From contig OX638135.1 of NCBI GenBank assembly GCA_951804985.1, positions 41,974,471-42,038,470 on the forward strand: 64,000 nt of DNA, read 5' to 3'. The notes under the pieces were generated by a model. That model was given only the letters and a program-made list of their open reading frames with translations, was not told where the DNA came from and made no database searches. The translations under genes were made by a program, and so were the position numbers. Positions 1 to 64,000 of this stretch are shown here, one piece after another. The stretch comes from Dryomyza anilis. Lineage: Eukaryota > Arthropoda > Insecta > Diptera > Dryomyzidae. Position 1 is the stretch's first letter. Every line of letters starts with the position of its first letter.

Positions 1-138
1 TTATGTCACATTGTCAGACCAAAAAAATATTTTACAGAAAAATAAAACAGTATTGCCATAATTACGTTCTTCATATATATTTTGGTTTAGTATACTAAAT
101 TAAACAATTGTTTTAAAAAGTAATTAAAATAAAAAACC

Positions 139-721
139 ATTTGGGAAGGTTAGATCACATGGGAAATTTTATAGTAGGTGTTATTATGATAGTTAGGATT
201 CTTTCAATCACTGAAGAATTTCCATTCATTTGATACCCATATTTACAAATGGGTAGGTGTACCGAATTTCGATTTTTTTTTTTGGGAACCACAAGTCGTT
301 TCGTGGGAAAACATTATTTTCATGTATTTGTCATTAAGTCAATATATATTTGACCAAAAAAGTTTACCTAAGCACGTAAACAGTAAAATTGAGCTGTAGA
401 TGTAAATTTTATATGAGGTATTTTAATATAAATGGTCAGATCACAGGTCACAATGAACCGATCTAGCCAATTTCGCACATACAGCGTAGGTATATAAGTA
501 ATCTAAGTTATCAGTTTCATTCATCTAGCTCTCCAATTTTTTAAGTAGTAGGGATTTCAACAGACAGACAGACAGACGGACGGACATCGCTAAATCGACT
601 CAGGAGATCATGCTGATCAAGAATATATATACTTTTCCATACCGGAGATGCTTCCTTCTGGGTGTTACAAACGGCGTACCAAACTGAATATACCCTTTCA
701 CTCTTAGTGTAGGGTATAAAA
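139..721 (+). repeat. Dispersed ~0.7-kb repeat (R700), copy A
   Basis: First of six copies of a repeat that starts near TTGGGAAGGTTAGATCACAT and ends near CTCTTAGTGTAGGGTATAAA. This copy lacks part of the 5' half that is present at 61,160-61,877. It contains a short CAGA/CGGA run at 561-583. No coding potential is convincing. The 3' part (GATCAAGAATATATATAC, then GAAGGAAGC...) resembles from memory a common fly repeat, but I cannot search that. The family is non-autonomous and of unknown class. Confidence 0.85.
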
Positions 722-949
722 ATATATAACATAATGTCCACATCGTCGATGAGGCATCTTTCTGATCCTTGTTGTTAATTTTTTTTCAAGAATTTCCTGT
801 TGTGTCGCCGGAGATAAGCACCAGGAAGTCGAGTGTGCGACCTTTGCAGCTCATCTTCGGGGCATTGTACGAAACGTGTATGAGCTCAGTGCTATCATCA
901 TCACGTACACACGTGAAACTGCGTCCCAGCTTGATAATTGAATTCCTTC
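722..949. other. Unassigned sequence, no gene seen
   Basis: A short stretch of balanced composition with no match elsewhere in the window that I can see. A 77-codon open frame crosses it but has no recognisable domain and continues into the duplicated block, so I do not call it a gene. Confidence 0.4.
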
Positions 950-2084
950 GTGAAGCACTTAATTATTTTGTTGCCCAGATCGTAATTAGTTGCCATTCCT
1001 GAATTTTCAAAGTGTTCTATGACAGAAGTTTATGATCAATGAAATAGTAATATTGTTGCAGACCACATTCCTGGCCAATATGTTGTCCTGTATCCAACGC
1101 CTCAGTCGTGCTTATCTCAAGTGAATAAATTTGCATTCAGACAGATATGCTAGCGAATGGCGACTCCGCATCTGCATAACAACTCCAGCGGCGCGGCGTG
1201 CATTTTTTGCCCTACAATGCCTTGGAAGACTACAATAATGTGCGCTCGATGTGTGTCTCGAATTTAAATTTGACTATTTTTTTTTTTCATTTAACAAATC
1301 ACTTCCATTCTTTTCCGTATATTTTTCTTTGGCTTTTAAAAACAACCTACTATTCAACAAGAAATTTGGTTTTAATGGAAAACATAACAACAATCAAACC
1401 TATAGATACACCTTTCTTACCTATGACGTTGGAAGAAAGTCAGCTTTAGATGTGTTTGTGAACATGCAAATTTTTTTGAGAGTGTGCGAACCGGTTGGAA
1501 ATATCGATGACTACCGGTTAGCGATTTTTTGCTGGGATAGTTCGGCCGTGCTGTTGGCATGCGCCGAAAACTTTCTGGAAACGCAATTATCAAAGTGTTG
1601 CGAACTATGTTGGAAAAACGTATGTTTTTACTCTTCGCCTTTATGAATAAGAAAAGTATTATTTTTAAAATACATATTAGCTGCGTTTTTTTCATAGTTA
1701 AACCAAGCGAGTGAACTTAAATGTGAAAAAAACGCATATACTGAACCTAATTTTTTCGACAAAGTATAAACGTGGTAATGGTTACCATTTTTTTCCATAT
1801 GAATATTTTCAGACCGCATTTATTTTTTATGATTTTATGTCAAGCCGTGGCAAGCCGTGGTTTCAGCAGAATTTGAAAAGCTGTCAAAAAATATATATAG
1901 GCGACATCTATGAAACGTAGCGAACACTAGAAAACTTATTAGCTAATTTCACAACCACAAAATTTTTAGTTCAAATGAATTGAACCAGCTGCCATGTTGG
2001 TTCAATTGTTGTTTTTGCTTTACGTATAAAATTAGAACTGAAGTTCAATTTGAATCAGTTCAAGTATGAAAAAAACGCAGCTAT

Positions 2085-2592
2085 TGTTACGAAAAGATGT
2101 AATTTGCCCCATGGTGCAAGCAATCAACAATAATAAATGAGACGCAAGACAATTCAGCGCACTAAGCAATGTGTTAGAAAGAGACGGAAGATCATTCAGC
2201 GCACTGAGGCAGTGTGCGAGAAAGAGATGGAAAATGAGAGGCCAATAGCATGCGTCATTCACAAAACAAGTAAAAGGTTCTCGAAACATGTCGAAACGTG
2301 TCGAACTGATGCATGCAGTATATAAGGGCGCCGCATCTGAGGCACATCACTTTAGTTGTGATTTGATAGTGAAGTAGTGCATCTCGTGAGCGAACATTGT
2401 AAGGATAAATTGTAGTAATACAGCAGTGGTTATAAGTGATTGTTAATAAGTTGTTATTTAAATATATTAAGTTAATTAATACTAGTTGAACTAATACTAA
2501 TTAAAACCAAATATTAGTTTGTTTTTATTTTGTACACAATCCAGCGATACGAACTTGTAGATCAGTTTTCCGTAGACGGAATTTTCGTAACA
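2085..2592 (+). mobile_element. G1 LTR, copy 1
   Basis: The sequence begins TGTTACGAAAA and ends TTTTCGTAACA, giving inverted terminal nucleotides typical of an LTR. The same LTR occurs at 26,639-27,174, 30,395-30,881, 34,948 onward, 45,849-47,345 (inverted) and 52,913-53,406 (inverted). A TATATAAG box and downstream AATAAAG-like signals fit a U3-R-U5 organisation. No primer binding site follows: the next bases are ATATTTTTTT. Confidence 0.85.
2319..2326 (+). promoter_or_regulatory. TATA box in G1 LTR
   Basis: TATATAAG followed by GGCGCCGCATCTGAGG is kept in most G1 LTR copies (also at 30,658-30,665, and in the inverted LTRs). It lies about midway in the LTR, where a retrotransposon promoter is expected. 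Promoter activity is inferred. Confidence 0.6.
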
Positions 2593-3135
2593 ATATTTTT
2601 TTATTTGATTTATTATGAGATTTTTTATTGATTAATAATATTTTATATTTACAACCAGTAAAAATACTAAGTAAATAATAGTTTTTTACTATTAAAAATA
2701 GTCAATAGGGTAAATTATTATTTTAATCTGAAAATACCATGACATTGTCATTAAGTTTATATCCGAACACTACCGGTCATACGAGCAGTAATATTACTAG
2801 TAGCAAAACTGAAAGTTTCAGTAAAAGTTTCGATAACGTTTTTAAGAGCGTCAGATATAAATGACCGAAACTTTTGTGTGCGTCTAATTTTTCATCTCTT
2901 TCTCACTCACATACAATGAGATACAATTGAATATATGTTTGTCACTGTTCTTTTGGTAATAAGTGACGATAAACTTACTGGTAAATTTACGAAATATTTT
3001 ACGTAACATACACAGAAAAAAGTATCGTTCGTCATATTGACAAACGACGTACATCAAACTGTTTTCGTAATATTGACGAACAAGCTAATCAATATATCGT
3101 ACACGCATACATGTTTTGATGTAGTCGTTTATTAA
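2593..3135 (+). repeat. A+T-rich leader segment shared by chimeric G1 copies
   Basis: This non-coding segment directly follows the LTR in four G1 copies (here; 27,175-27,690; 45,848 leftward; 52,912 leftward). It holds self-complementary stretches such as AGTAATATTACT, and repeated CGTAATATTGACGAA-like motifs. It stands where the primer site, gag and protease should be. It carries no primer site. Confidence 0.7.
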
Positions 3136-3141
3136 TAGCTG

Positions 3142-3420
3142 CGTTCCCGTGGTTTTTGATCCTGATCCGTAGATCATTTTCATATACAAAAGCAAAACAA
3201 ACAATTAGAACCAGGTTTGTTTTAGGATCAATTACTGATCAAAAGTATCAAAAGTAAATTTGTTTGTGGTGATGTTATGCTATTGTGAATAGCACTTAAA
3301 AAGAAGACGAATTCGCGTTCAAAAAAAAAAGGGCAAAAGAAAACAGTGCTGCCAAATTTATTAAAATAGAACCGATGGCGTTCCCGTGAAACAGATCTGG
3401 TTCAAGTACCACGGGAACGG
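3142..3420. mobile_element. MITE-like insertion with ~25-bp imperfect TIRs
   Basis: The ends read GCGTTCCCGTGGTTTTTGAT and, on the other strand, CCGTTCCCGTGGTACTTGAA, giving an imperfect inverted repeat of about 25 bp. An extra internal TIR-like motif (GGCGTTCCCGTGAAACAGATC) lies near 3,378. It interrupts G1 copy 1 exactly where the copies at 27,700-27,890 and 52,080-52,200 have continuous sequence, although some G1 sequence is also missing. There is no coding capacity. Confidence 0.65.
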
Positions 3421-3838
3421 GAAATTGTACATAAAGAAGAGTTCTCAAGTTGGAAAACTCGTAAAAATTAATCAAAAAGGGAGCAGTAATAGGCATGTGT
3501 CAAGAGGCATCAGCGATCAAAGGACTATGTCACACCGCAAATAAACAAACAATGTACTCACAAGTTTATAAATGATTGGACAAAGGATTTGGCTACTAAA
3601 GAAAAGAGTCAAGTGCAAAATTGATAAATATCGGTATATATTTGCTAAAAAGGGCCAAAAATATGGCAGAACTGCCATTGTAAAACATCGAATAGACACT
3701 GGTGTTTCTAACCCAATTCGTCAAGCACCAAGAAGGGTACCATTTGCGAAAAGAGACGAAGTATCATATTTGGTTAAAGAAATTCACACAAATGGCGTGG
3801 TGCAACCATCTGAGAGTCCATGGAGTTCCAAGCAGTTA
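3421..3838 (+). pseudogene. G1 copy 1: protease-RT linker and RT N-terminus, truncated
   Basis: Broken frames match the protease-RT spacer and the start of the reverse transcriptase of the other G1 copies: a YRYIFAKKGQK segment, then HRIDTGVSNPIRQAPRRVPF, then SPWSS. This is the N-terminal part of a Ty3/gypsy RT, upstream of the catalytic palm. The homology stops at about 3,838 and changes into unrelated repetitive CACCAACC sequence. The spacer is frameshifted relative to the RT. Confidence 0.75.
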
Positions 3839-3951
3839 ATGGTGGATTTAATTAAACCACTGCGTCACCAACCACGTCACCAAACACTTCACCAACCATA
3901 TTTCAACCTCGCTCCTGTTTACAATGAATTCGCTTCTAAATATATGAAAAA

Positions 3952-4080
3952 ATAAAAGAGATAAAGTTTTTTTTCAAAACTTAATAATTAGCTTTTTAAA
4001 TGCTATATTAAAAGAGATAACAGTTTTTTTCAGAACTTTACAAAATAAGCTTTTTTTTAAAGCTATATTTTAAAAGAGAT
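3952..4080. repeat. Two degenerate ~64-bp tandem units
   Basis: The pattern AAAGAGATAA..GTTTTTTTC..AACTT...AGCTTTTT..GCTATATT occurs twice in tandem, ending in a third AAAGAGAT. It is non-coding and A+T-rich. Confidence 0.6.
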
Positions 4081-4789
4081 CGCGTATTTGGGTTTTCATC
4101 TTCATATATTATTCATATTTTGATTGTAAAATGTATTTATTTTTTCTTGCTGTAAATAATTTTTTTAAATAATTTAACAAATTTTTATTAATTTTTAACT
4201 TATTTTAATCAATTTCAATTTAACGTAATTTTAATAAATTTACATTAAGCTATTATAATTATCACAATTTTTTAATTTCATTTGTTTATCAAATTTCTTT
4301 GAATTTGTTTTGCTTTCATTTAATGTTTAAATAATTTAGTGATAAATTCAATCATTTTTTTTATAACGTAATCAATGCTACCAAAGAAGTGTGCACAGTT
4401 CTTCGCCGCGAAATGGGTGAGTCTGTTATTATGATTATTATTTTGTTTGGAATCTAATATCCATTTTTAAATCAGATAATGATATTAGTGGGTTTGTTTT
4501 TTTTCTTAATCGATTGGATTAAAATTTAAACAAAGATTTTGATTGAATTTTATTTTTTTCTGCTTTGTTGGGTAGGGTTTTGAATCGGCCATGTCAGAAA
4601 GACGCTTCATGCTGGCAATCTTCTTTTCTTTCTTACAATTTCCTTTCTAGTTTTTTTATTTTCATATTAAAATTCTGTTTTCTTTAATTTGTTTTGTTTT
4701 TTTTGTTGTTATATCAATCGGTGTTATACATATTTGTGACGTAGCAACATAGACGTAGGGGACAAGATCCCACCCCACCCCATGTAGGA
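4081..4789. other. A+T-rich sequence, no gene seen
   Basis: Mostly low-complexity T/A. Two short less biased stretches (around 4,380-4,425 and 4,575-4,620) have no recognisable domain. A GGGTGAGT at 4,415 could mimic a 5' splice site but no supported exon flanks it. Confidence 0.4.
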
Positions 4790-5550
4790 AAAAACGATGG
4801 GCCCCAGGTTCGTCCAGTCTAGCGCTAAGAATACATTGCTCTGGGCCAGGTCTGGTACCCAGAACTGGCTGAATACTGGTTAAGCCTTGGAATGATAAGA
4901 AGGGCGCAAGACTGGCTCTAAGTATTCGGCCAAGACTGACAAAAAATACTTGGCCAATATAATATAAGAATTATGGGCCAAGGCTGGACCATTTCAAATA
5001 CCCAGAAGTGGTCGAATACTGGCTGAACCTTGGAGTGATGATAAGGGTCGAGACTTGGTACATAATTTTAGACCAATACTAGTACAAAAACCGCATACAA
5101 ACCAGACACAAACACAGTAATTATAAATGTACAATTAATAAATTTAATTAAACATAATGCTATAGATTACATGAATACAATGTAAAAATAATAATTAACA
5201 TATAAATAAGATATAATATGACCAACTCGTTCGCGATCTGTGGCTCAGATAAATATTAATGGCCTTAAATAAATTTCCTGACTGTATGTGGTTTTACTGC
5301 ATCTGTAACAAAAAAAAACATTTTTGAAAACATATATTAATTCATTGAGTAAATCTAACCGATGTTTTTGGTTTTAAATTGCAACAAAGATAACAAGTGT
5401 TACATCTGAACAAAAAAATATTTAACAGTGAAATCGGTGAAGTAACAATGTTTTTTAAAACAATAAATAATACTGGATGATTGTATACGCTGAAAAATAA
5501 CATAATTGAAGGTCATCATTCTATGATTGGGATCATGATTGTGTGATCAG
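4790..5550 (+). mobile_element. Foldback-type DNA element, left half (copy i)
   Basis: The left end is an array of degenerate motifs of the type CCAAGACTGG/CAGAACTGGCTGAATACTGG (4,800-5,080), followed by A+T-rich DNA. The same order occurs at 32,240-32,900. The other half of this copy lies at 24,345-24,960, beyond the G2 insertion. It is non-autonomous, with no ORF. Confidence 0.65.
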
Positions 5551-5706
5551 CTTAGCGCTTTGCCAACGTGAAGCGTTGGGACAATGCTATGAACATGTTG
5601 CTGTACAACATGATATAAAAACATAATGCGCTCAACATATGTACAGCAACATCCAAAACTGAATGAACCATAAAGAAAAGAAAAATGTATGCACTAATTC
5701 ACAACA
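5551..5706 (-). mobile_element. G2 3' LTR, truncated
   Basis: These 156 bp match the end of the 5' LTR (24,165-24,344), including CGTGAAGCGTTGGGACAATG and the terminal AATTCACAACA. The remaining ~500 bp of LTR are missing, and the join runs directly into the foldback element at TGTGATCA. A ~20-bp stretch near the truncation is also missing relative to the 5' LTR. Confidence 0.8.
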
Positions 5707-5725
5707 TTCCTCCCCCCTTATGGAA
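5707..5725 (-). promoter_or_regulatory. G2 polypurine tract
   Basis: On the minus strand this reads as AAGGGGGGAGGAA immediately before the LTR start TGTTGTG. Its position and purine content are those of a plus-strand priming site. Confidence 0.8.
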
Positions 5726-6143
<418 letters not shown>

Positions 6144-6620
6144 ACCCTACACTAAGAGTGAAAGGGTATATTCAGTTTGGTACGCCGTTTGTAACACCCA
6201 GAAGGAAGCATCTCCGGTACCTCATATAAAATGTACAATAAAGATCAATTTTTATGTATACGTGCTTCGGTAAACTTTTTTGGTCAAATATATATTGATA
6301 TCATGCTCAAATACATGATAATAAAGCTTTCCGGTGAAAAGACTTGTGGTTCACAAAAAAAAAAATCGAAATTCGGTACACCTACCCATTTGTAAATATG
6401 GGTATCAAATGAATGGAAATTCTTCAGCGATTGAATGTTTGTAGTTATTTTCAGGATTCGTATACCCTGGTGACCTATATATCACTTTGAATGGTAACCA
6501 CACATATATGTAGGGTATTTATAGTCGGCTTAGACCGACTATAATTTTGATAATCCTAACTATCATAATTACACCTACTTTAAAATTTCCCATGTGATCT
6601 AACCTTCCCAACTGTTTTTT
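6144..6620 (-). repeat. R700 repeat, copy B (inverted, internally deleted)
   Basis: Begins TACCCTACACTAAGAGTGAA and ends at AACCTTCCCAACTG on the plus strand. The middle around the CAGA microsatellite is missing compared with 37,297-38,012: CTCCGGTA is joined straight to CCTCATATAAAATG. Confidence 0.85.
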
Positions 6621-6680
6621 TTTATTTTTGTGTTTTGTATATAAATATATATATATTTTTTAATATCTTTCGTTTTATAC

Positions 6681-7467
6681 TGTAACGGTCCGGTTTCCGG
6701 GTTCAGATCTGAGAAGTCCGTGCATTACAACTTTATATTTGCAGCACCAAATAAATACGCCGTGCGCAATTTATCTTTATTAAATTCATTCTAATATATT
6801 ATGATGCAGTGTCCTGCCTGATGCACTCGACGCTCCCCGCTGGTTCTCGCTGAAATATGTGTTTGCAACCAGACTTACTCGATGCGATGTGTTTTCAGGA
6901 ACTGTTTGATATGTCCTGGGTCCATAACCAGGACGGAAACTCTAGTCAGTTATGTCACGTTTGGTCCACGTGTCCCCCGATACGGTTTAATTAAAAACAC
7001 ACCCATGGCAACACGCTTGGCAGAGTCCCCCGATACGGTTTAATTAAAAACACACCCAAGGTAACGATGCAGCTATTCAGTCACGAAGTCAGGAACAGAG
7101 AGAGAGATTTTTCCTCGTGCAATGCCTTTTATAGGCCATTAGTTGGTGAAGCGTTGGTGGGTTGTTGCCCACGATTCTGTAGCATTTCTACGTCTGTGTA
7201 TCGGTGATGCGCTCACCAGTGAGTGTGTATTCGTAACACTTTGCCGCTTCGCTCACTGGTGCGCCTGTGTTGGTGACACAATTGTATGTTCTGGCCGTTG
7301 GTGTCTGCTAATTCTCTCACCAGTGAGAGTATATGAGTGACACTCGTTGGTGTTAATTCGATGCTCTGCGTCGTGTTTGGTTCGACGGCGTTGACGTCGT
7401 AGCCGGTTGCTTGGATCCGCCGTGAATGTGCGGTCGCCATTTGACGCCTCAAAATGGTACCGTCACA
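6681..7467 (-). mobile_element. G3 3' LTR
   Basis: 787 bp; in element orientation it runs TGTGACGGTACC...CCGTTACA. It is about 98 bp shorter than the 5' LTR, mostly through three or four discrete indels (for example the GGGATAGCTTAGCGGGCTCC segment of the 5' LTR near 14,390 is absent here). Confidence 0.93.
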
Positions 7468-7485
7468 CCCTCCCTTTACTTCGGT
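7468..7485 (-). promoter_or_regulatory. G3 polypurine tract
   Basis: The minus strand reads AAAGGGAGGG directly before the LTR start TGTGACGG. This is the expected site for plus-strand DNA priming. Confidence 0.8.
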
Positions 7486-7632
7486 TGAGAAAGAAGGCAG
7501 CCTACCTCAGTTCAATGACGGTCGCCTCTCCCGAGCCATTGATCGTGATGCGGTATCGACGTCCTTTTATCCGACGGATGGTGGACATTGGCATGTGGTC
7601 TCGCCGGTTTTGGCTCACGGGCCTAACCACTG

Positions 7633-9505
7633 CTAATACTTCTGGTGGTAACTCGTCACCTGCCGCTCGATCAGTCGTACCATCGGATGGGTCCTCGCTC
7701 GCATCCGGCTGTGAAATGTTGGGTCTGGTATTACTGCTTCTTGCCTCGTCACGGTCAGTGCTGCTACTGCTACCGCTGCTACTACTGCTGCTGCTACCGC
7801 TGCTACTACTGCTGCTGCTACGGCTGCTACTACTGTGGTTGGTAGGCCCATATGCCTTTCGCGCAGCCGCTGTACACCACGGTTTGGTCGTCGTCTTCGG
7901 TGGGATGTAACCGTCGGTGATGACCGTCGTGGTGTGGTTATAGCCACCTGTAGTGCCCCTGGTACCTCTTCCTCGTATGGCGTGGTCGCTACTGCAGTCC
8001 GCTGTGAGACGCTCTGCTGGTCTCTCGTTCGTTGTGGGGCGCTGATTGTCGCGCCAGCCACCTCCTGTTGTGTCGTCGTCGTGAATGCGTCGCTGCGACG
8101 CTTCGTCGGCACAGCCGTCCGCTGTGAGACGCTCTGCTGCTCCTCCGCTCGTTGTGGGGCGCTGCTCGTCGCGCTGGCCACCTCTTGTTGTGTATTTGCA
8201 AACACCTCTGCGTCGCGTTGCTGTTGCGCTGGTTCAGCAACCTCTGGTGCGGCGTCCAAAACCTCCTCTATCTGGGTGCCTACAGCCGTCCACTGTGCAC
8301 TCCTCCAGACATCCTCCCACTTTTGAGCGCCGGTTACCGCATCTGCGGCCCTTGGTTGGGTCTTTTCTCCCACGGCTATCAGCCGTGCAACGCTCTGTTG
8401 CGTCACCTGGAACATGGTGATGGGCACAGCTATCTGCCGCGCTGCTGTAGCCTGCGTATTCGTCGTTCTGGCCACCTGATTGGTAGCGGGTCGCTGGAAA
8501 GCCCGCTGCGCTGGTCGCTTCGCCAGATCAGGCCATACTGGGACCGCTGTCACCCCTTCGTTTGCCAGAAGACGGATCTGCCGGGCAATGATCCCTCGTT
8601 TCGCATCGCCTTCTCTGCTACTGAACCTCCTGCTTGTGTCAAACGGCGGGTACAGATGGTGTTGCGGGTCTCGTCGCAGACACTCAACGTTCTGTAGCAA
8701 GTAGACGCCGTAATCATAAAGATTCGGCTGCTGCGGGACGCTGACCTCGTAGTAAGGCGTGTTGATTTCTGTAAACTCATGGCCTACGTCGCCATCTTTA
8801 CGTGAAACTGCCGTCAAAAATTCACGCAACCTCACAGACACATGGCGACGGGTCCGGGTTGCCAGTGAATCCATAATCAGGATGCACGGGCCTTGTGCTG
8901 CTCACCACTCCTGATTCTTTGGTGCCGCGCCATTCAGGCACACCACTGCTAGGTACCAATGATTGGTTTCGTTCACAGGCACCACCAAAATGTCGTGCGA
9001 GAATGGGTCCACTCGTCTCGCCCACGTCTGCACACATCTCTCTACGCCTCGGGATAGGCTGGCGTAGAAGAACGTGTCGTAAACATGCATCCGTCCACCT
9101 GAAACCGCGTCCTCTGTATTCTGCTGCGACCACTGAAACCAGAAATTGAGGATCGTGTCGTTTAGGAAACGCCCGACTGCCAGACAGCGATAGTCTCCTA
9201 CGGTGACGGACACGCCTTATTTTCATAGCGGGTATCTGCTTAGGTGATGCGTAACACCTTTGTCGACGGGTCTCGTCACGATCCGGTTCTTCTGGTAGGG
9301 TGCTCGACTTTACCATACATCGCTGCAGTGCCGCTGTCGTTGGGCGCAATATTGCGCGCAGTTCATGGCGACTGCTTTCGTTCAAGCCACCTGCGTCTTC
9401 AGGACTCAATGGTGGTGCGTCATCAGCATGACGAAGTGTCGCCAACAGTTGAAGGCAGTAGTCACCTGTGTCCTGCTCCATTGAAGTAATCCTGCGATGA
9501 CTCAT
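7633..9505 (-). pseudogene. G3 extra ORF: Ulp1/SENP-like (C48) cysteine protease, inactivated
   Basis: A third reading frame lies after the integrase, where an env would be in errantivirus-like elements. The likely start is the Met at 9,505 (MSHRRITSMEQ). An N-terminal ~95-residue part is followed by a frameshift near 9,215 and then the protease core: FLNDTILNFWF, YDTFFYASLSRGV, a VPVNETNHWYLAVV segment with the catalytic His (codon 8,959-8,961), ILIMDSL with the catalytic Asp (8,869-8,871), and VPQQPNLYDYGVYLL. In C48 proteases the last motif reads DCG; here the Cys codon is TAC (8,710-8,712), one base from TGC. A TGA at 8,902-8,904 breaks the frame. The C-terminal part has two ~30-residue repeats (QQSVSQRTAV) and an Ala/Val-rich run from a triplet array. 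C48 enzymes cleave SUMO-like tags; a role here is inferred only. Confidence 0.85.
7755..7845. repeat. Triplet-rich array coding the Ala/Val run
   Basis: Alternating CTGCTAC/CGCTGCTACTA units repeat at about 18-21 bp and encode VAAVAAAVVAAV on the minus strand, near the C terminus of the Ulp1-like ORF. It probably arose by slippage. Confidence 0.75.
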
Positions 9506-9934
9506 TCTCAGATTTTTTTTTATTTTTTGATAAAACTTAACAGCTCGAAAAATCTTTTTGTGCTTCACGAATTGCTGCGCCAAATTCCGCGAATTGTAAA
9601 TTTGAATTTTTAACGACACTGTCGACTACGCACGAACCTCACACACACCAATGTTTTCGTGTTTGTGTATGCGCATTGTGTTTCGCTCTCTGAGAGCGCT
9701 TGTGCGTCGCCGTGGACCGCTTTCGTTATTCAAGCTCTCCGTGCGAGGCTCTCTTTCTGTTTGCACATACCGGGGGTGGGTTTTTGTATTCGTACCGCGA
9801 GTGTTGATTCTCTCTTGCAATGATTTTTGTTGTTTCGCCGCATGCGTAGTGGTTTTGTTGTTGCCATTTTCGGTGCCCGTGGCATTCCACGTATTTCCTG
9901 TCTCCTGTGCCCCTTGACGTATAAATTTCAAGCG

Positions 9935-10265
9935 ATTATGCTCCATCGAGCGTTGATTTAATCCGCGACACGAATTTAATTTCACGCGATCATGTGATTT
10001 ATGCTGCATTGAGCGTTGATTTTGTGCGCGACACGAATTTAATTTCACGCGATCATGTGATTTATGCTGCATCGAGCGTTGATTTTGATCGTGACTTGCA
10101 TGTAAATGTTTGCGATCAAGCTCCATCGATCGTTGGTTTTGTGCGCGACCCGCATGTAATTTCACGCGATCATGTTCCCTCGATCGTTGGTTTTGTGCGC
10201 GACCCGCATGTAATTTCACGCGATCATGCTCCATCGAGCGTTTATTTTGCGCGCGACCCGAATGC
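9935..10265 (-). repeat. Coding minisatellite between integrase and the Ulp1-like ORF
   Basis: About six units of 54-66 bp share GCGCGACCCGCATGTAATTT and CGATCATG motifs. On the minus strand they encode repeats of the type GRAQNQRSMEHDRVKLHA, in an open frame running 10,285 to 9,626. That frame follows the integrase stop (10,282-10,284) in another phase, so it could be an expanded integrase tail after a frameshift, or a spacer. The peptide is basic and Gln/Arg-rich. I recognise no domain. Confidence 0.75.
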
Positions 10266-10281
10266 GATTGCCGCTGATTTG

Positions 10282-10795
10282 TCACGCTCGTTTCCGAATA
10301 TTTCCCCCGCGGGGTTGTTTTCCTGGATAATAACGTACAGGAATTGTTACTCCTGGTGGCGTCGGGACTCGAAACGCGTTAGAAATTTTTAAATCTTTAT
10401 CGCTGTCGTTCGTCTCGTAGCTCCGTTGCTCCGTTGCCCGTTCATTCGGCGTCTGCACCTCAGCGCCTATCGTGACCTCGTTATAAAGTGCCTTCGGGAG
10501 TCGTGGCTCCCGTCCTTGAGTCAAATATGCCGGACTGTAGCCTGTAGTCTCCGACACACTTGTATTAATTGCCAACGCAATTTCTGGCAACTGCTCGTCC
10601 CATCGGTTCTGTCGGTGTTCTGCCAACTGCGCTATGATTGTCTTCAGAGTCCTGTTCGCCCTGTCCGTAGGGTTTTCCTGGGGTGTGTACGGATCTGTGA
10701 ACTGTTGACTCACGCCCATATTTTGAAGAAATCGCCTGAACGCCTTGCTGGTGAATTGTGCTCCATTGTCAGTAATGAGCACGTGGTGTAAGGAC
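10282..10795 (-). pseudogene. G3 integrase, core C-terminal part
   Basis: The frame holds LITDNGAQFTS (second catalytic Asp) and TPQENPTDRANRTLK (catalytic Glu), followed by the usual helix (WDEQLPEIALAINTSVSETTGYSPAYL). The zinc-binding N-terminus and the strand with the first catalytic Asp are missing. At about 10,796 the sequence jumps from the region just after RNase H (AVAWKL) straight to ESLHHVLITDNG, a loss of well over 100 residues with a stop at the join. The product cannot integrate DNA. Confidence 0.85.
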
Positions 10796-11956
10796 TCATA
10801 GCTTCCAAGCTACTGCCTCGCTGTCGTCTGAGTGTTGCGGTAGATGCCTATATAGACTACCATCTTCAATGGCATAGTCGGGGAACTTTTCTGGTTGTTC
10901 TCGTATCTCGATTATTCGTCTGTCCGTCCATGGACAACGATCTTCAGCTGATGCCTCCTCTCTGGTCTTCATCAGCGTTTCCATTGGTTGCCTAGACAAT
11001 GCGTCAGCCACGACATCCAGCTTCCCTTTGCGGTACTGGATGTCGAATGTGTGCTGCTGTAGCTCCAGTGCCCAGCGCGCGATCCGCCCAGAAAGGCTCT
11101 CAATGGAGTTCAGCCATTTCAGGGACAAATGGTCGGTGATGACCAGGAACCGATATCCTTCCAGGTAAGGCCGCATTTTTCTAATTCCCCATACGATGGC
11201 TAGGCACTCCTTCTACGTTGGCGAGTAATTTTCTTCTGCCTTGTTTAACCTGCGGCTTGCGTATGCAATGACACGCTCCAGGCCATCAATGTCTTGCGTC
11301 AGCACTGTTCCTAATCCATAGTTGCTGGCGTCCGTCTGCAGCGTGAACTTTTTAGTAAAGTCTGGGCAACCCAGCACTGGTGCCTCATTTAGCATAACCT
11401 TTAACTGATCAAACGCCAACTGCTGTTCATCTGACCAACTGAAATGCTTCCCCTTTTTCAGCAGTCCTATCACTCGGTCTAGTGCGCGCTGAAATGTCGC
11501 CGGGGCCGAATGTAGCCCAAACGGCATCACCCGCCATTGGTACAGCCCTCGGCCAGGCACTGTAAATGCGGTGAGCTTCTTTTTGTCCTCGTCCATAGGG
11601 ATCTGCCAATACCCATTCTTTAAATCCAAACTGCTAATGAATTTAGCATTCTTCAATCGATCCAATATGTGGTGAATGCGTGGTAATGGATAGGCGTCCT
11701 GCACTGAATGCGAGTTCAGCTGCCGGTAGTCGATGCATAGCCGCCACTGTCCCGTCTCCTTCTTGACCAAGACAATAGGCGCACTGTGGGGGCTCCCTGA
11801 CGGCTCTATGCACCCCTTCGCGATGAGCGCGTCGACTTCCTCGTTGATAATCGCCTGCATCGCTGGATTCTTCGGAAAATAGCGCTGCTTTAGGGGGCGA
11901 TCATCCTTCATTATTATCTTGTGAGTGGTGAGGTCAGTTGTCCCCCCATTACTCAC
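10796..11956 (-). pseudogene. G3 reverse transcriptase-RNase H lacking the YxDD box
   Basis: The RT starts near 11,956 and shows the usual gypsy blocks: KGCIEPSGSPHSAPIVLVKK, CIDYRQLNSHSVQDAYPLPR, SLDLKNGYWQIP, MPFGLHSAPATFQ. After ALDRVIG it jumps at ~11,464 to LLKKGKHFSW, a thumb/connection sequence, so the strand with YxDD and ~100 neighbouring residues are gone without a frame change. RNase H follows (TDASNYGLG, YSPT) and is cut by a TAG at 11,213-11,215 where a Glu codon is expected. It then continues as MRPYLEGYRFLVITDH...DALSRQP. It is inactive as a polymerase. Confidence 0.9.
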
Positions 11957-11991
11957 AAACTTCCCAAGTTACTCCTTTAGAAATTGATCAA

Positions 11992-12537
11992 TTATTTCTT
12001 GTTCGCTGCGAGAGTCCGGTCGCACCACTGTGCACACCGGCTGCCGTTCTGGTTGCTGCCCCACTTCTCCCAAGGTGACACTCTGTCCACCGCAACTCCT
12101 GCCCGCTGTAAAAAATCCATCCCGATGATGATGTGGTCGACCACTGTGGGTAGCACCAGCAGTGTCAAAGGGCACTCCCTGTCCCCGAGTCTGCCGATCA
12201 CTAGTATCTGCTCCTTAACGTGCCTAGTTGCACCATCCGCCATGCTCACCCTGACATCCGTGCTTCTGCAATTAAATGGTGTACGAATCATCTGTGTGCA
12301 GACTTCGCTCACAAAACTCCGTGTTACGCCTGTGTCGACCGTTGCGACCGCCAACTCGTTGTCAATGGCAATTGTTACCACAATACGAGTCGCCTCCTTT
12401 TTCAGAGCTACTGCTGGATACGGGGAGCTGTGTTCGGGGCAGCCATCCCTCGCTACTGGCGGTTCCCCCGGTAGTTTCCCGAACGTCGTTGACAACATTC
12501 GACAGTGCGAACGCTCCTGCGTCCGCACTCCCAACAA
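11992..12537 (-). CDS. G3 retropepsin-like aspartic protease
   Basis: An open frame of 181 residues with the active-site motif ATVDTGVTRSFVS at about residues 65-77 and the later hydrophobic-Gly motif HIIIGMDFLQRAG. This is a single-domain retroviral-type protease that would cut the Gag-Pol polyprotein. It overlaps the gag frame by about 85 bp in another phase, consistent with translation by frameshifting, and is separated from the RT by a short spacer around 11,960-11,990. The real N-terminus is probably within a Gag-Pol fusion rather than at the first Met. Confidence 0.75.
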   Translation of the reverse strand: MLGVRTQERSHCRMLSTTFGKLPGEPPVARDGCPEHSSPYPAVALKKEATRIVVTIAIDNELAVATVDTGVTRSFVSEVCTQMIRTPFNCRSTDVRVSMADGATRHVKEQILVIGRLGDRECPLTLLVLPTVVDHIIIGMDFLQRAGVAVDRVSPWEKWGSNQNGSRCAQWCDRTLAANKK

Positions 12538-13724
12538 AATACAATCGCGTCATTACGGCAGTCCGCCTGCAGGTGTCCGTCGTGTCCGCAACGCCTGCAT
12601 GCGGTCCTTGGGTTAATGTCCACCCTGGTGACATCATCCAATCGTCGATTTTGTACCTCTCGTGGCCGTGCTGCGTGATGTGGCTGCGCGTGCCCCATCC
12701 TTTGAATAACGTCGTATTCGTCCGCCAGGTCTACTAGCTCTTCCATCGTGGAGAAGTCGCGACGCCGAATATATAGCTGATATTCTTGGCGGCAATTTCT
12801 AAAAACTCGATCCAGCTCTGTCTGCTCGTCGTAGTGCGCATGCCTCATCATGTCCTTCATTCCGATGACATAATCTCTGAACGTCTCCCGCGGCCGTTGT
12901 GTCCGTTTGTGGATGTCGTCATCGAGATCCTCAAAAAATCGTGGCGGCAGGAAAAACCGTAGAAACCCTCTCTTAAATTCACTCCAAGTAGTAGTTGTTT
13001 CTGTACCACGTCAATGCTCTCCCCTGCAAGAGATCCGCCAATCCGCGTGGAACCCAATCGCGGTCCACTCCATAGGTCTGCGTCAGCTCCTCTATGCGCT
13101 CGATGAACACCAGCGGGTCGCTGCTGCCATTAAACTTCACTGGCCATTTTCTCATCCGCTCCATTGCAATATCTTATCTTACTGCCTCTCCTTATCTTAC
13201 GCTGCTCCTTGATGGTGGACTGGTGCCGCCAACTGTTGCGCCCTTTGCGCCTGTTGCTGCTCCTGTTGTATCAGCTGCTGCGCCACCTGCGCCTGCTGTG
13301 CCTGTTGTTGTGCCTGTTGCTGTTCCTGTTGTTTTAGCTGCTGTGCCATTTGTGTGATTTGTGTAATTTGCGACTGTTGCGCTAATTGTGCCTGTGCCAC
13401 TGTCTGTGTTGTAAACTTTGGTGGCTGTGTCTCAGCCATCGAAAATGTGTAGGGTGACGAAGTTCCTACCGACATTAACGGCTTGGTAATGAATGTGAGC
13501 AGTGTGCATGTCTGCTCACTAGTGGTAAAAATAATTTTTGACTCACCCGGAAGTAGCGTTCCTTCGGTCGTACTGAGTCCAGCGGGTGGTAGAGTTAGCA
13601 ACTCCTGGAAACTGCTGGCTCCTGCCATCGGTAACGGTGAGACGCTCTTGCTGTGCCTGAGCTCCAACTTCTCCAGCCGCTCCACCTCTTCGCTGCTTTG
13701 TTTGCCTTCATTTATAAAGGCCAC
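12453..13724 (-). pseudogene. G3 gag (Gln-rich segment, capsid-like domain, zinc knuckle)
   Basis: The N-terminal frame (13,724-13,197) ends in a Gln/Ala-rich, low-complexity stretch. A stop and short gap follow. Then a capsid-like segment (PVKFNGSSDPLVFIERIEEL, then LLQGRALTWYRNNY) of the retrotransposon-gag type appears, broken by one or two frameshifts near 12,975-13,060. The C-terminal frame (12,860-12,453) continues FRDYVIGMKDMMRHAHYDEQ and carries a CCHC knuckle CRRCGHDGHLQADC and a second, degenerate Cys cluster (CWECGRRSVRTVECC). It would form the particle and bind RNA. At least two breaks make it a pseudogene. Confidence 0.8.
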
Positions 13725-14339
13725 GAAATTTTTGCGACAGTGCCGGTGCCATTAAAGCCGAATTCTGCGGCGTAAGTTGTAAGGTCCTCCTTCCGGAGAC
13801 CGTACACCCATGTCACCTTGACCATGGTGGTTTATATTTGTAATTATTTTTTTTTCACTGCGCGTTGCTTTTTAAAGGTTATGTCACTCTTGTATTGTTC
13901 ACTTTGTTTTTTTTTCAATTTAAACTGCGGTTTTCAATTTTTTCAGGGGATTATTTACTTTATTATTTTTCACTTTTCTCAGGGGATTTCTTTGTTCAAT
14001 TTTTTTCTTTTCACTTATCTTGGGGCTTGTTTTCTTTTCACTTTCTCAGGGGGTTTCTTTGTTCATTTTCACAGTTCTATTTGGCGCACTGTTTCTTTTT
14101 TTTTTCAATAGTTTATTTTTCCATCAAGCGTGGAATGTTCGTTGTTTTACCTGTTTAGGCGATCGTTGGTTTTATTTGTTTATGCGTCGTTCGTTGCTTT
14201 ACTTGTTTATGTGGTGACCGTTGCTTTTTTCATTTATGCTGCGTTCGTTTGCTTTACTTATTTTATGCTGCCAACGTTGTTCTGCTTACTGTTGTGTCCA
14301 TCGATGCGGCGTTTATTTGGCGTGCATTTATTTGATTTT
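13725..14339 (-). other. G3 5' leader
   Basis: The region between primer site and gag is T-rich on the plus strand, with repeated TTTTCAGGGG(A/G)TTT motifs around 13,940-14,060. The short ORFs seen there are composition artefacts. No feature beyond the leader role is supported. Confidence 0.6.
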
Positions 14340-14360
14340 TGCGTTGCACTGGGGGTCCCA
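14340..14360 (-). promoter_or_regulatory. G3 primer binding site (putative)
   Basis: Directly inside the 5' LTR the minus strand reads TGGGACCCCCAGTGCAACGC. The TGG start matches the CCA end of a tRNA. I could not assign the tRNA with confidence. Confidence 0.65.
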
Positions 14361-15245
14361 TGTAACGGTCCGGTCTCCGGGTTCAGAGCTGGGATAGCTT
14401 AGCGGGCTCCAGAAGTCCGTGCATTACAGAAATTTATATATACAGGGAAAACCCTCAGCACCAAATAAATACGCCGTACGCAATGTGGTTATCATTATTC
14501 AATTTATCTTTATTAAATTCATTCTAATATATTATGAGGCAGCGTCCTGCCTGATGCACTCGACGCTCCTTGCTGGTTCTCGCTGAAATATGTGTTTGCA
14601 ACCAGACTTACTCGATGCGATGTGTTTTCAGGAACTGTTTGATATGTCCTGGGTCCATAACCAGGGCGGAAACTCTAGTCAGTTATGTCACGTTTGGTCC
14701 ACGTGCCCCCCGATACGGTTTAATTAAAAACACACCCAGGGCAACACGCTTGGCGAAGTCCCCCGATACGGTTTACTTAAAAACACACCCAGGGTAACGA
14801 TGCAGCTATTCAGTCACGAAGTCAGGGACAGAGAGAGATTTTCCCTCGTGCAATGCCTTTTATAGTCCATTGGTTTGTGAAGCGTTGGTTCGTTGTTGTC
14901 CAACCGTTGGTGGATTGTTGCCCACGATTCTGTAGCTTTGCTACGTCTGTGTATCGGTGATGCGCTCACCAGTGTATTCGTAACACATTGCCGCTTCGCT
15001 CACTGGTGCGCCTGTGTTGGTGACACAATTGTATGTTCTGGCCGTTGGTGTCTGCTAATTCTCTCACCAGTGAGAGTATATGAGTGACACTTTGTAGCCA
15101 AGCTCACTGGTGAGCTTGAGCTCGTTGGTGTTAATTCGATGCTCTGCGCCGTGTTTGGTTCGACGGCGTTGACGTCGAAGCCGGTTACTTGGATCTGCCG
15201 TGAATGTGCGGTCGCCATTTGACGCCTCAAAATGGTACCGTCACA
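14361..15245 (-). mobile_element. G3 5' LTR
   Basis: 885 bp, with the same ends as the 3' LTR (TGTAACGGTCC...CCGTCACA on the plus strand). The right end is followed by ATAC, the target duplication. It contains direct repeats of the CCCGATACGGTTTAATTAAAAACACACCC type (two units, ~14,710-14,790). Confidence 0.93.
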
Positions 15246-15317
15246 ATACTTGTGTAATATTTATTCATACTTATAATGATAATCTAACCGATTTAATACT
15301 TGTAATTGGATGATAAT

Positions 15318-17649: not shown

Positions 17650-18560
17650 AATGTTTTATGGCCCACTTCCCTCTACGACCACGTAGGGTCCCTTCCAAAT
17701 TGGAGAGAGCTTATTCTTCCTAGTTTGGTTTTTCATTAAAACCATGTCGTGTGGTTTGAATTGTATAGGGTTGAGGTTCTTGTCGTATTGTTTTATCGAC
17801 ACCTCCTAGGCCCTACATTGATTTTGCCTGACGATCTCGTGTGATCGCTGTATTTGGTACTTTAATAGCTTATTGTAGTCTTCTGCGTTATATAAAGGTT
17901 AACATTTACGCTTTAAATTCGTAGGCATGTCGAAGTCAAACCCGTACACCGTACGGAATGGTGTTTCACCCGTCGACGTACGGACCATGTTATTATGAAT
18001 ATGCATTGCAGAGTTTAACCATTGGTCTCAGTTTGACCCATCCTCTTTAGCAAAACTAAGTAAATATTCAGCTAGTGGACGATGATTTCGTTCCAATGAC
18101 CCATTAGCCTGTGGATGGTAGGGTGTTATATGTAATTTTTTAATTCCTAACAATTTACATGTATCCGAAAATAGTTTGGAAACTAAGTTCGATCCATTGT
18201 CTGTTACCAATACTTTGGGTATATTGTGGCGTGTAACTATTTCGTTGAAGAATGCTTTTGCTACGGTGTTGGCTTCCGCATCGGGTATAGCCACACAGCA
18301 CATAAATTTTGAAAAATCGTCCTGAAAAGTTAAGATGTATTTATTCCCTGAAATGGTTTCAGGCAGAATACCCACCATGTCCATGTACACTTTGTCAAAG
18401 GGTCTGACTGGCGTATCAGTTAGAACCATTGGCATCTTCGTTAGCCTTGAACTCTTGTTTACCTGGCATTTTGAACAATTTTTCACATAATCCTTTATTT
18501 GTTTCTGCATACCCTTTCATCGGTACTGTTGCCGAATTCTTAAAAATGTTTTTACGCCAC
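17650..18560 (-). pseudogene. G2 integrase
   Basis: The main frame (18,510-18,028) has the end of the zinc-binding domain (CSKCQ), then the catalytic core with the first Asp in KVYMDMVGILP, the second in VTDNGSN, and the Glu in QANGSLERNH. All three acidic residues are present. To the left the frame continues through MHIHNNMVRTSTGETPFRTV and YDKNLNPIQF...NKLSPIWKGPYVVVEG, typical of the C-terminal domain of 17.6/297-like integrases. It is interrupted by about four stop codons, so the protein is not made whole. Confidence 0.88.
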
Positions 18561-18599
18561 CTTGGTTACCACCTAACGGTGAATCGTGAAATTCCTTAA

Positions 18600-19417
18600 T
18601 TACCGTTTGAGACGGAAACGCGCAAGACGTGATGTCTGATCTTTTAAGTTTGTTATACCCTTTAGGGGCTGATAAATTTTAAATGATCTTTTCAAAAGAT
18701 ATGCCCTAAAATTTTTTGTTGCCCATACAATTGCCAAAAATTCTTTCTCTATAGTAGAGTAACGTGTTTCCGCATCGTTGAGAGACCTACTGGCAAACGC
18801 GATCGGACGGTCGCTTCCAACTTCACCTTGCGAAAGCCTGAAGGTAACCACTGGCTAAATCTAGTATTGAAAAATACCGACTATGTTCTAACTGGTCTAA
18901 AATCTCATCTATTCGTGGTATTTCACCTGTTTGATAGTGACGTCATTTAATTTTCGGAAATCTATAACCAGTCTCCATTTCTTATTGCCATCTTTATCGC
19001 CCTTTTTAGGTACCAATAATAATGGGGAATTCCAAGGCGACATGCTTGGTGAAATAATTCCATCGTCTAACATCTTTGATACTTGTCTATTAATCTCATT
19101 TCTATGCATATGAGGAAGTTTATACTGTTTCTGATTTATTGGTGGCTGATTCCATTGTGTGGGTATTTCATGTTTTAATATCGGAGTGAATGTAATTCAT
19201 CCCCTTCCAAATGAAAAACGTCATGATATAACAAGCAAATATTTTGCAAAGATGCAACTTCTTCTTTATTTAATGATTCATCGATCTTTATATTTCCTAA
19301 TAATCTATCAATTCTATTTTTTATATTAACCGAGTTTATTGTAGAACTCGTCTTTGTTGCTTCTTTATATTTGTTAAAATTGGAAAATTGTGGCTTGAAA
19401 TTGCTATCAATGGTCAC
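18600..19417 (-). pseudogene. G2 RT-RNase H with the RT palm deleted
   Basis: The frames show the RT N-terminal part (EINRQVSKMLDDGIISPSMS, NSPLLLVPKK, WRLVIDFRKLNDVT), a frameshift near 18,930, then IPRIDEILDQLEHSRYFSI and DLASGY. At ~18,850 the sequence jumps to RNase H (LSQGEVGSDRPIAFASRSLN, EKEFLAIVWATKNFR). About 150-200 residues including the YxDD strand are missing. Upstream (19,417-19,175) is the protease-RT linker. It cannot act as a polymerase. Confidence 0.87.
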
Positions 19418-27759: not shown

Positions 27760-29427
27760 GTGCGAAAAGTGGATTGGTCGAAATTAAATGCAGATTGTGG
27801 GATAAGCAAGTTGTGGGTTATTGAAGCAAAAGAAGAACATTATACAAGTAATATGGTTGTAGGAAGAACACTTTTTGAGGCGGCAAAAGAGAAAATTGTA
27901 CATAAAGAAGAGTTCTCAAATTGGAAAACTCATCAAAATTAATCAAAAAGGAAGCAGCAATAAGCCAGTGTCAAGAGGCATCTGCCATTATAAATTGCGA
28001 GTCAAATCCATCAAAGGACTATGTCACACCGCAAATAAACAAACAATCTACTCACAAGTTTATAAATGATTGGACATAGGATTTGGCTACTAAAGAAAAG
28101 AGTCATGTGCAAAAGCTAATTGATAAATATCGGTATATATTTGCTAAAAATGGCCAAAACGATGACAGAACTGCCATTGTAAAAATTGAATAGACACAGA
28201 CACTGGTGTTTTCAACCCAATTCGTCAAACACCAAGAAGGGTACCACTTGCGAAAAGAGACGAAGTATCATATTTGGTTGAAAAATGCAAAAGCGTGGTG
28301 GAAAAACCTGAGAGTCCATGGAGTTCCAAGCAGTATTGGTGCGTTGACTACCGAAAACTTAATGATGTCACCAAGAAAGAAAGTTATCCACTACCCAGAA
28401 TCGATGACACCTTGGATACACTATATAATGCTAAGTGGTTTTCAACATTGGACTTGCAAAGCGGTTACTGGCAAGTAGAAATCGATTAGAAAGATAGGGG
28501 GAAGACCGCATTCACTACTGGCGATGGACTACGTAATGCCCCAGCCACATTCGAACGGTTAATGGAGCACTTATTAAGAGGTCTACACTGGAAAACTTGT
28601 CTGGTATACCTTGACGACATCATTGTCATGGGCAAGGACTTTGACGAACTTATTCCTTCGATTGAAAAGTGCGAGTCTACAACTTAGTCCAAAGAAATGC
28701 TCACTTTTCAAGAAAGAAGTCAAGTATCAGAGTCATCGAGTTATCACAGAAGGAGTACACACCGATGATGATAAAAAAGATGCAGTAAAGCATTGGCCCA
28801 GACCGCAAGTCTGTGATAAATGTCCAAGAAAAAGTTATCGCATACTACAGAAAAACCTTGTCCAAGCCCGAGCGAAATTACTGTGTCACCAGAAGGGAGC
28901 TTCTTGCTGTAATCGAAAGTGTGGAAAATTTCCACAAATATCTGTACGGAAAACAGTTTCACTTAAGAACCGATCACGCCGTACTGAGATGGTTACTTCA
29001 GTTTAAAGACCCAGAAGGCCAAATGGCGCGTTGAATAGAGCGATTACAAAGCTACGATTTCACCATCGAACATCGTAAAGGAGGTCATCATGGAAATGCA
29101 GATGCTCTGTTACGACGAAACATAATTGACATTCGTTTGCTGAATGTTTCACGCGATGAAAATTGGACTCTGAAGTAAATTAAAATTGATCAAAAGAGTG
29201 ATTCCGATCTCACAAAAATCATGATTTTCAAAGAACGGCAAAGAAATCTATCATGGCAAGATATATCTGCCGACAACCCAAAAATTAAGTCTTACTGGGT
29301 GCAGTGGCAGAGATAAAGCTACAAGATGGTTGCCTATATCGTGTATGGGAAAGTGAAGATGGCACCTCTGCTCGAAGTTTGATTGTTGTTCCCAAGTCAA
29401 AAATAAAGTAGATATTAGTGGAATACC
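27760..29427 (+). pseudogene. G1 copy 2: pol from protease-RT linker to RNase H, degenerate
   Basis: After the leader the sequence enters pol in the protease-RT linker (NMVVGRTLFEAAKEK). The RT shows [35 protein letters not shown], and the catalytic CLVYLDDIIVMGK near 28,596-28,634. Two deletions are shared with the copy at 49,352-52,200: TGDGL joins NAPATFE (the MPFGL block is lost), and WPRPQ joins directly to the RNase H block (GQEKVIAYY in another frame). Many frameshifts. RNase H (YLYGKQFHLRTDHAVLRWLL) and the start of the integrase region follow. It breaks off at ~29,427. Confidence 0.85.
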
Positions 29428-29454
29428 GTTAATATCTACTAAATCTACGCTGAA

Positions 29455-30881: not shown

Positions 30882-30882
30882 T

Positions 30883-30901: not shown

Positions 30902-30911
30902 GTGATACAAA

Positions 30912-63984: not shown

Positions 63985-64000
63985 AGCATTCGTTGACGAC

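What the first reader, a model, noticed from the sequence alone, without database searches (positions are those of the whole stretch)
7633..9505. A Ty3/gypsy retrotransposon with its own Ulp1/SENP-like (C48) protease ORF
Between integrase and the 3' LTR, where env-like genes normally sit, G3 encodes a domain that matches Ulp1/SENP at every landmark: FLNDTI, FFYASL, NHW, MDSL, QQPN-x-YD-x-G. Ulp1-like domains are known from some DNA transposons (for example certain plant MULEs). I do not recall one as a defined third ORF of a fly gypsy element. SUMO is an important cofactor of silencing in flies, so a mobile deSUMOylase could counter host silencing; that last step is speculation.
Basis: partly seen in the sequence, partly recalled or inferred. 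Interest (0 to 1): 0.88.

Follow-up and report, generated by a model that had tools for sequence, protein, structure and literature searches.

The report
Retrotransposon carrying its own SUMO protease
This stretch holds a decayed copy of a Ty3/gypsy jumping gene, probably in a fly, whose many relatives in the same genome carry a third gene for a predicted SUMO-removing protease that likely helps them escape the host's silencing.

Summary
The finding holds and is larger than one copy. The window copy (6681-15245, minus strand) is a Ty3/gypsy element (two LTRs, 4-bp target duplication, gag-PR-RT-RH-IN) followed by an ORF3 (7502-9505) with a Peptidase_C48 domain (E=1.4e-20, X at its one in-frame stop). 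This copy is dead: frames broken, pol partly deleted, primer site mostly gone, catalytic Cys replaced by Tyr.

Elsewhere in the genome the domain is a standing part of the element. Integrases at least 84% identical have C48 downstream on the same strand in 39 of 41 cases; none of 150 integrase hits has it upstream or on the other strand. Six families, down to 39% identity, carry it. In 34 other copies read, His and Cys are kept in 34, Asp in 33; dN/dS is 0.09 between the two closest families. Six copies with all three genes open have identical LTRs.

The domain is of the SENP6/7-Ulp2 class, from one origin. Some families later lost it and still amplified, so it is accessory. Its likely role, inferred only, is to strip SUMO from host silencing factors.

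Eight paper searches showed no LTR element with such an ORF; Ulp1 domains are known in nematode non-LTR retrotransposons and in DNA transposons.

The parts
14361..15245 (-). 5' LTR (TGTGACGGT...ACCGTTACA), 885 bp
   Evidence: direct repeats D3/D5/D6/D9/D10, blastn, ends read; 34 differences in 778 aligned sites to the 3' LTR
6681..7467 (-). 3' LTR, 787 bp, preceded by a purine-rich tract (AAAGGGAGGG)
15246..15249 (-). target site duplication GTAT, 5' side
   Evidence: 4-bp duplications also in 5 of 5 young copies whose two ends could both be read
6677..6680 (-). target site duplication GTAT, 3' side
12456..13010 (-). gag piece: Retrotrans_gag E=2.1e-6, CCHC knuckle weak (E=0.07)
   Evidence: Pfam
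11995..12549 (-). aspartic protease piece of pol
   Evidence: Pfam gag-asp_proteas E=3.1e-8
11216..11968 (-). reverse transcriptase with start of RNase H; lacks about 273 nt that intact copies have
   Evidence: Pfam RVT_1 E=3.2e-24; comparison with L010
10799..11212 (-). RNase H, second part
   Evidence: Pfam RT_RNaseH E=3.1e-17
10285..10809 (-). integrase, second half only (rve core from TDNGAQF on)
   Evidence: Pfam rve E=2.5e-7, just under its cut-off; about 417 and 321 nt missing against L010
9936..10264 (-). 54/63-bp tandem repeats in the C-terminal tail of pol
7502..9505 (-). ORF3-homologous region, broken: two frame changes and one TGA
   Evidence: frames, intact ORF3 proteins of relatives
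9214..9505 (-). ORF3 N-terminal part (MSHRRIT...YRLQLL-like start in relatives)
   Evidence: tblastn 'up' piece to relatives, 76-81% over 72-73 aa in family A
8659..9171 (-). Peptidase_C48 domain, SENP6/7-Ulp2 class; catalytic Cys replaced by Tyr in this copy
   Evidence: Pfam, solved SENP7 best match, tree, residue tally
8902..8904 (-). in-frame TGA inside the C48 domain
   Evidence: sequence
7502..8600 (-). ORF3 tail: Thr/Gln/Ala-rich repeats, Ser run, then a conserved C-terminal end (IKGRRYRI-INGSG-ATVIELR)

Best explanation
It is a lineage of Ty3/gypsy retrotransposons whose third ORF encodes a Ulp2/SENP6-7-type protease domain, which would likely strip SUMO from host chromatin proteins that silence the element. 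Shown by sequence: position and order (LTR, gag, pol, ORF3, LTR), class of the domain, conservation of the catalytic residues across six families, purifying selection, a single origin, recent insertion of copies with all three ORFs open, and later loss of the ORF in some families. Inferred: the element captured a host SENP6/7-like coding sequence once; ORF3 is made as a separate soluble protein; it is catalytically active on SUMO; by lowering SUMO or SUMO chains on silencing factors such as the Su(var)2-10/SetDB1 machinery it eases transcription of the element. Loss of the ORF in some families fits a trans-acting accessory factor that other copies supply.
For: C48 in own genome: 129 matches of 150 scored, 150 with the N-terminal half as query, 165 merged loci, host genes included. 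Order integrase then C48 in 71 of 150 integrase hits, reverse order or other strand 0 of 150. In 34 other element copies read: His 34, Cys 34, oxyanion Gln motif PQQPN 34, Asp 33. C48 dN/dS 0.09 between families A and B; pN well under pS in all 15 family pairs. Six copies with all three ORFs open have 100% identical LTRs over 868-898 b. The element domains are one clade (97/94) within the SENP6/7-Ulp2 group, apart from host Ulp1 (96/98). No membrane segment in 17 of 17 ORF3s scanned. Literature: reduced SUMOylation through Ulp1 mislocalisation activates Ty1 in yeast (PMC8585004, passages); SUMO ligase Su(var)2-10 and SUMO-binding Mi-2/MEP-1 act in piRNA-guided silencing (PMC7272611, passages); SUMO knock-down derepresses R1/R2 in fly ovary (PMC7676866, passages).
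Against: No activity, expression or substrate is shown. Eight of nine 1298-aa pol frames of family D1 have no C48 within 4 kb, so the element can multiply without it in cis. The long loops that SENP7 carries are missing, so chain preference cannot be carried over. SUMO silencing of R1/R2 was found independent of piRNA and without loss of H3K9me3, so the path is not settled. The domain changes about eight times faster than RT at amino-acid sites (dN 0.11 against 0.013), compatible with relaxed constraint as well as with a host-facing role.
Confidence: 0.45

Rival explanations
1. The protease acts on the element's own proteins: it would keep integrase or Gag free of SUMO chains and so protect the pre-integration complex from SUMO-targeted ubiquitin ligases, or process a polyprotein.
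For: Ulp2/SENP6-7 enzymes counter SUMO chains and limit SUMO-targeted ubiquitin ligases (PMC6965010, abstract); Helitron-borne deubiquitinases are proposed to protect proteins needed for transposition (PMC9741609, passages); nematode NeSL and Utopia non-LTR elements have a Ulp1-like domain fused to their RT protein (PMC4640811, passages).
Against: Pol has its own aspartic protease, so processing needs no second one; families without C48 still multiply, although supply in trans would explain that.
Confidence: 0.3
2. ORF3 acts through its C48 fold or its long tail without catalysis, for example as a SUMO-binding scaffold.
For: The tail and its conserved C-terminal end persist in families A, B and E, and a similar end remains in two C48-less relatives.
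Against: His and Cys are kept in 34 of 34 and Asp in 33 of 34 other copies across families only 39-45% identical.
Confidence: 0.12
3. A passive passenger: a host gene piece caught in the element without function.
For: Some families lost the ORF and still multiplied; the window copy is broken.
Against: Six families, silent sites saturated between most of them, catalytic residues kept, dN/dS 0.09, ORF3 of 858-932 aa open in copies with identical LTRs.
Confidence: 0.06
4. An envelope-like protein in the usual ORF3 place.
For: Position between integrase and 3' LTR.
Against: No hydrophobic segment: highest 19-residue Kyte-Doolittle mean 0.73-1.29 in 17 ORF3s; the only Pfam domain at E 0.1 in 4 of 4 ORF3s scanned is C48.
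Confidence: 0.02

Closest known systems
NeSL and Utopia-1_TSP non-LTR retrotransposons of nematodes (PMC4640811, passages)
   Same: Retrotransposons with a Ulp1-like cysteine protease domain
   Different: Non-LTR elements; domain is N-terminal in the RT protein, not a separate ORF between integrase and LTR; class within the C48 family not compared here
Ginger1 DNA transposons with C-terminal Ulp1 domain (PMC2836005, passages)
   Same: Gypsy-type integrase followed by a Ulp1 domain
   Different: Cut-and-paste DNA transposon with inverted ends and no RT; domain fused to the transposase
Mutator-like elements with ULP domains (cited in PMC2836005, passages)
   Same: Mobile element with a C48 domain
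   Different: DNA transposons
Bdelloid rotifer LTR elements with GDSL or DEDDy ORF3 (PMC5408684, passages)
   Same: LTR retrotransposons with an enzymatic, non-envelope ORF3 after pol
   Different: Different enzymes
Orchid Ty3/gypsy elements with an AlkB m6A demethylase ORF (PMC9289625, abstract and passages)
   Same: Ty3/gypsy lineage that took up a host regulatory enzyme, proposed to face host surveillance
   Different: RNA demethylase, plants
SENP6/SENP7/Ulp2 (host velo-like gene at G000:C5:83352193-83353484)
   Same: Closest class by tree and by solved structures
   Different: Host gene with at least two exons and long loops; element domain is compact and intronless

Membership tests
Ty3/gypsy LTR retrotransposon | pol order PR-RT-RH-IN | tested here: met
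   Pfam on L010 and L029 pol, and the window pieces
Ty3/gypsy LTR retrotransposon | LTR pair TG...CA and short target duplication | tested here: met
   window and 5 of 5 young copies with both ends readable have 4-bp duplications
Ty3/gypsy LTR retrotransposon | tRNA primer site after the 5' LTR | tested here: met
   TGGCGCCCGAGCAGGGA in the five copies whose LTR end was read; mostly gone in the window copy. That it fits tRNA-Lys is recalled, not tested
Peptidase C48 (Ulp/SENP) | Pfam PF02902 over its cut-off | tested here: met
   window 74.5 bits with X at the stop; four intact ORF3s 59.5-79.4 bits
Peptidase C48 (Ulp/SENP) | catalytic His-Asp-Cys with Gln | tested here: met
   met by the lineage: 33 of 34 other copies have all. 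Not met by the window copy, whose Cys is Tyr
SENP6/7-Ulp2 class | groups with SENP6/7-Ulp2 and apart from Ulp1/SENP1-2 | tested here: met
   tree support 96/98; best solved match SENP7, 3.6e-30 against 2.4e-16 for the next
SENP6/7-Ulp2 class | cleavage of SUMO chains | not testable with these tools
   needs enzyme assay
SENP6/7-Ulp2 class | long inserted loops in the catalytic domain | tested here: not met
   about 21 residues where SENP7 has about 63 between the two halves, and no 16-residue insert
Errantivirus-like env ORF3 | membrane segment | tested here: not met
   17 of 17 ORF3s without one
Ginger1 DNA transposon | no RT, terminal inverted repeats | tested here: not met
   RT, RNase H and LTRs present
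Retrotransposon anti-silencing factor | raises element expression by acting on host silencing | not tested
   no expression or functional data

The most novel reading that the evidence does not exclude
A lineage of insect LTR retrotransposons took up a host SENP6/7 gene and uses the enzyme as a diffusible anti-silencing weapon: it erases the SUMO marks through which the host's small-RNA and heterochromatin machinery shuts transposons down, works in trans for sister copies, and therefore let ORF3-less derivatives arise and spread as free riders.
Probability: 0.33. Interest if true: 0.92.

Novelty: new variant of a known kind. Interest (0 to 1): 0.77.

Why it matters
SUMO is central to transposon silencing in flies, but a transposon that brings its own SUMO protease between integrase and LTR was not found in print here. 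Many copies are young with open reading frames, so the idea that retrotransposons attack the SUMO step of silencing becomes testable with one purified domain and one cell line. Families that carry and families that lost the ORF give a natural comparison.

Tried and rejected
Protein database searches gave little: the tail piece found nothing, the C48 region only three fish SENP6/7-like proteins, the ORF3 alignment one Aspergillus and one fish C48 protein (7995 candidates scored, capped). The search needs shared five-letter words, so this does not show that other flies lack the element. All three searches are used.

Envelope reading: rejected. Ginger1-type DNA transposon: rejected. One-copy host fragment: rejected.

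Gain or loss in sister families: the integrase tree has an unresolved backbone (2 of 7 inner branches starred), so whether L049 and L051, which lack C48, never had it or lost it is open. Direction in family D1 is clearer: L032 matches L026 on both sides of a gap of about 1.6 kb, with six shared letters at the join and a remnant of the ORF3 end.

Host origin: forcing the element clade to pair with the host velo-like gene is not rejected (p-AU 0.361) but not shown either; the tool warned of long branches.

Splice signals for ORF3: one acceptor-like stretch in L026, none by the same kind of pattern in L020 or L029; left open. L026's LTRs were not found in the stretch fetched. L048 was fetched and not analysed. 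Structure prediction was not used, because its stated rule does not list loci taken by place from the genome.

Species: not identified. DUF753, which I recall as a fly family, gives 42 matches.

Full report
What is in the window. On the minus strand, 6681-15245, lies an LTR element: 5' LTR 14361-15245 and 3' LTR 6681-7467, ending TGTGACGGT...ACCGTTACA, flanked by the duplication GTAT. [quoted passage not shown] The LTRs differ at 34 of 778 aligned sites (K2P 0.045). Pol has lost three stretches and the primer site is mostly gone, so the copy is dead.

The third ORF. The region 7502-9505 is homologous to an ORF of 858-932 aa in other family-A copies that hold it whole. Its C48 domain (8659-9171) is beyond doubt: 5e-11 and 5.8e-5 for the two pieces, 1.4e-20 with X at the stop. 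In this copy the ORF is broken by frame changes and a TGA, and the catalytic Cys is Tyr.

The same thing across the genome. The window lies in a 656.6-Mb assembly. A C48 family search gives 129 matches among 150 scored of 166 candidates; a search with the N-terminal half of the window's domain gives 150 of 150 scored, 181 candidates. Merged, these are 165 loci, including host genes. Of the first 20 family hits, all fetched, one (L009) is a host Ulp1-like gene and 19 have integrase similarity upstream of C48 on the same strand. Of 150 integrase hits (150 scored of 5388 candidates), C48 follows within 4 kb in 39 of 41 at 84% identity or more, 22 of 31 at 77-83%, 7 of 34 at 71-76% and 3 of 44 at 65-70%; upstream or opposite-strand C48: 0 of 150.

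Families and activity. By C48 identity to the window I separate six groups: A (92-94%), B (76-77%), E (62%), C (56-58%), D1 and D2 (43-49%). Eight of the 12 family-A copies fetched have gag, pol and ORF3 all open, as do L029 (E) and L026 (D1). In six of these ten the whole or nearly whole LTR pair was compared: identical over 868-898 b (L010, L016, L018, L020, L024, L029); L026's LTRs were not found in what was fetched, and for L013, L015 and L019 only 33-71 b could be compared, identical. Five of five with both ends readable have 4-bp duplications. So elements with ORF3 have moved recently.

Selection. In 34 other element copies, His 34, Cys 34, PQQPN 34, Asp 33. C48 between A and B: pS 0.600, pN 0.105, dN/dS 0.09; for the other 14 family pairs silent sites are saturated or nearly so, and pN stays below pS. 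RT-RNase H between A and B: dN 0.013, dS 0.72, so ORF3 is constrained but changes about eight times faster at amino-acid sites. Within-family comparisons have too few differences to judge and some ratios exceed 1.

Class and origin. The best solved match of an intact domain is SENP7 at 3.6e-30, then Ulp2 at 2.4e-16. In a tree with the host Ulp1-like and velo-like genes, fish SENP6/7-like proteins and an Aspergillus Ulp2-like protein, the 13 element domains are one clade (97/94) inside the SENP6/7-Ulp2 group (96/98); their place within that group is unresolved. This argues for one capture before the families split. Gene names of the host copies are my reading of these matches.

Loss. L032 is a D1 element without C48: it matches L026 at 94% up to just before the ORF3 start and at 89% from near the ORF3 end on, with six shared letters at the join. 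Eight of nine 1298-aa D1 pol frames have no C48 within 4 kb; of the eight only this one was read. L050 is a D2-like element that keeps both ends of ORF3 without C48. L049 and L051, sister families at 69-70% integrase identity, have no C48 or long third ORF.

What ORF3 is not. None of 17 ORF3s has a membrane segment, so it is not an envelope protein by that test. Four of four scanned have no Pfam domain other than C48.

A conserved spacer. Between pol stop and ORF3 start, families A and B share 119 of 161 aligned letters and A and E 55 of 68, above all 500 shuffles; A-C and E-C do not exceed them. With silent sites saturated between A and E, this suggests a signal for ORF3 expression. I could not show splicing.

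Mechanism. Best reading: a SUMO isopeptidase of Ulp2 type, acting on host silencing factors. Precedents: mislocalised Ulp1 raises Ty1 RNA and transposition, which the authors ascribe to lowered SUMOylation of unknown factors (PMC8585004, passages); Su(var)2-10, a SUMO ligase, and the SUMO-binding MEP-1/Mi-2 unit serve piRNA-guided silencing (PMC7272611, passages); loss of SUMO derepresses R1/R2, there independently of piRNA and with H3K9me3 kept (PMC7676866, passages); SENP6/7 and Ulp2 counter SUMO chains (PMC6965010, abstract). All steps from activity onward are inferred. The main rival is action on the element's own integrase or Gag.

Known relatives. Ulp1-like domains are reported in nematode non-LTR elements (PMC4640811, passages), Ginger1 and Mutator-like DNA transposons (PMC2836005, passages). 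LTR elements with other captured enzymes are known in rotifers (PMC5408684, passages) and orchids (PMC9289625, abstract and passages). Insect MDG1-group LTR elements carry another accessory gene, sORF2, for cell-to-cell transfer (PMC11952523, passages). No paper with a C48 ORF in an LTR element appeared; this open-licence library lacks most subscription journals, and Repbase was not available. Hence new variant of a known kind.

Noticed in passing
G000 contig C7 (23.2 Mb): 47 of 165 C48 loci lie on this contig, which is 3.5% of the assembly: a strong heap-up, perhaps a small heterochromatic or sex chromosome.
   Followed up: no
L032, L050: C48-less derivatives of families D1 and D2 that keep pol and ends of ORF3; the D1 form with open 1298-aa pol outnumbers the C48 form 8 to 1 among frames of that length.
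   Followed up: partly
L020:3717-3941, L028:3654-3855, L029:5926-6220: Non-coding spacer between pol and ORF3 conserved across families A, B and E, candidate signal for ORF3 expression.
   Followed up: partly
L030 (G000:C5:83351500-83354200): Host SENP6/7 (velo)-like gene with C48 split over at least two exons, a possible donor class of the element's domain.
   Followed up: partly
L031, L047, L048: Other C48-like sequences in the genome outside the element clade or not placed; L047's match has an equal-scoring twin on C1, and L048's has two equal-scoring twins on C7, so they may be further mobile C48 carriers.
   Followed up: no
window 101-6651: Inverted arms 203-330/6308-6435 (93%), 640-734/6125-6219 (94%) and 101-200/6552-6651 (82%) just beside the element: perhaps a long-inverted-repeat DNA transposon.
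   Followed up: no
window 57053-60064 and 40013-45164: An open frame of 1003 aa and broken relatives on the other strand that read like a non-LTR retrotransposon with endonuclease and RT (my reading, not searched).
   Followed up: no
window 17914-19142, 28259-31852, 34314-34706, 49475-51718: Further gypsy-like RT, RNase H or integrase stretches, unlike the present element: the window is a nest of retroelements.
   Followed up: no
window 62986-63985: Two tandem copies of a 499-bp unit, 99% matching.
   Followed up: no
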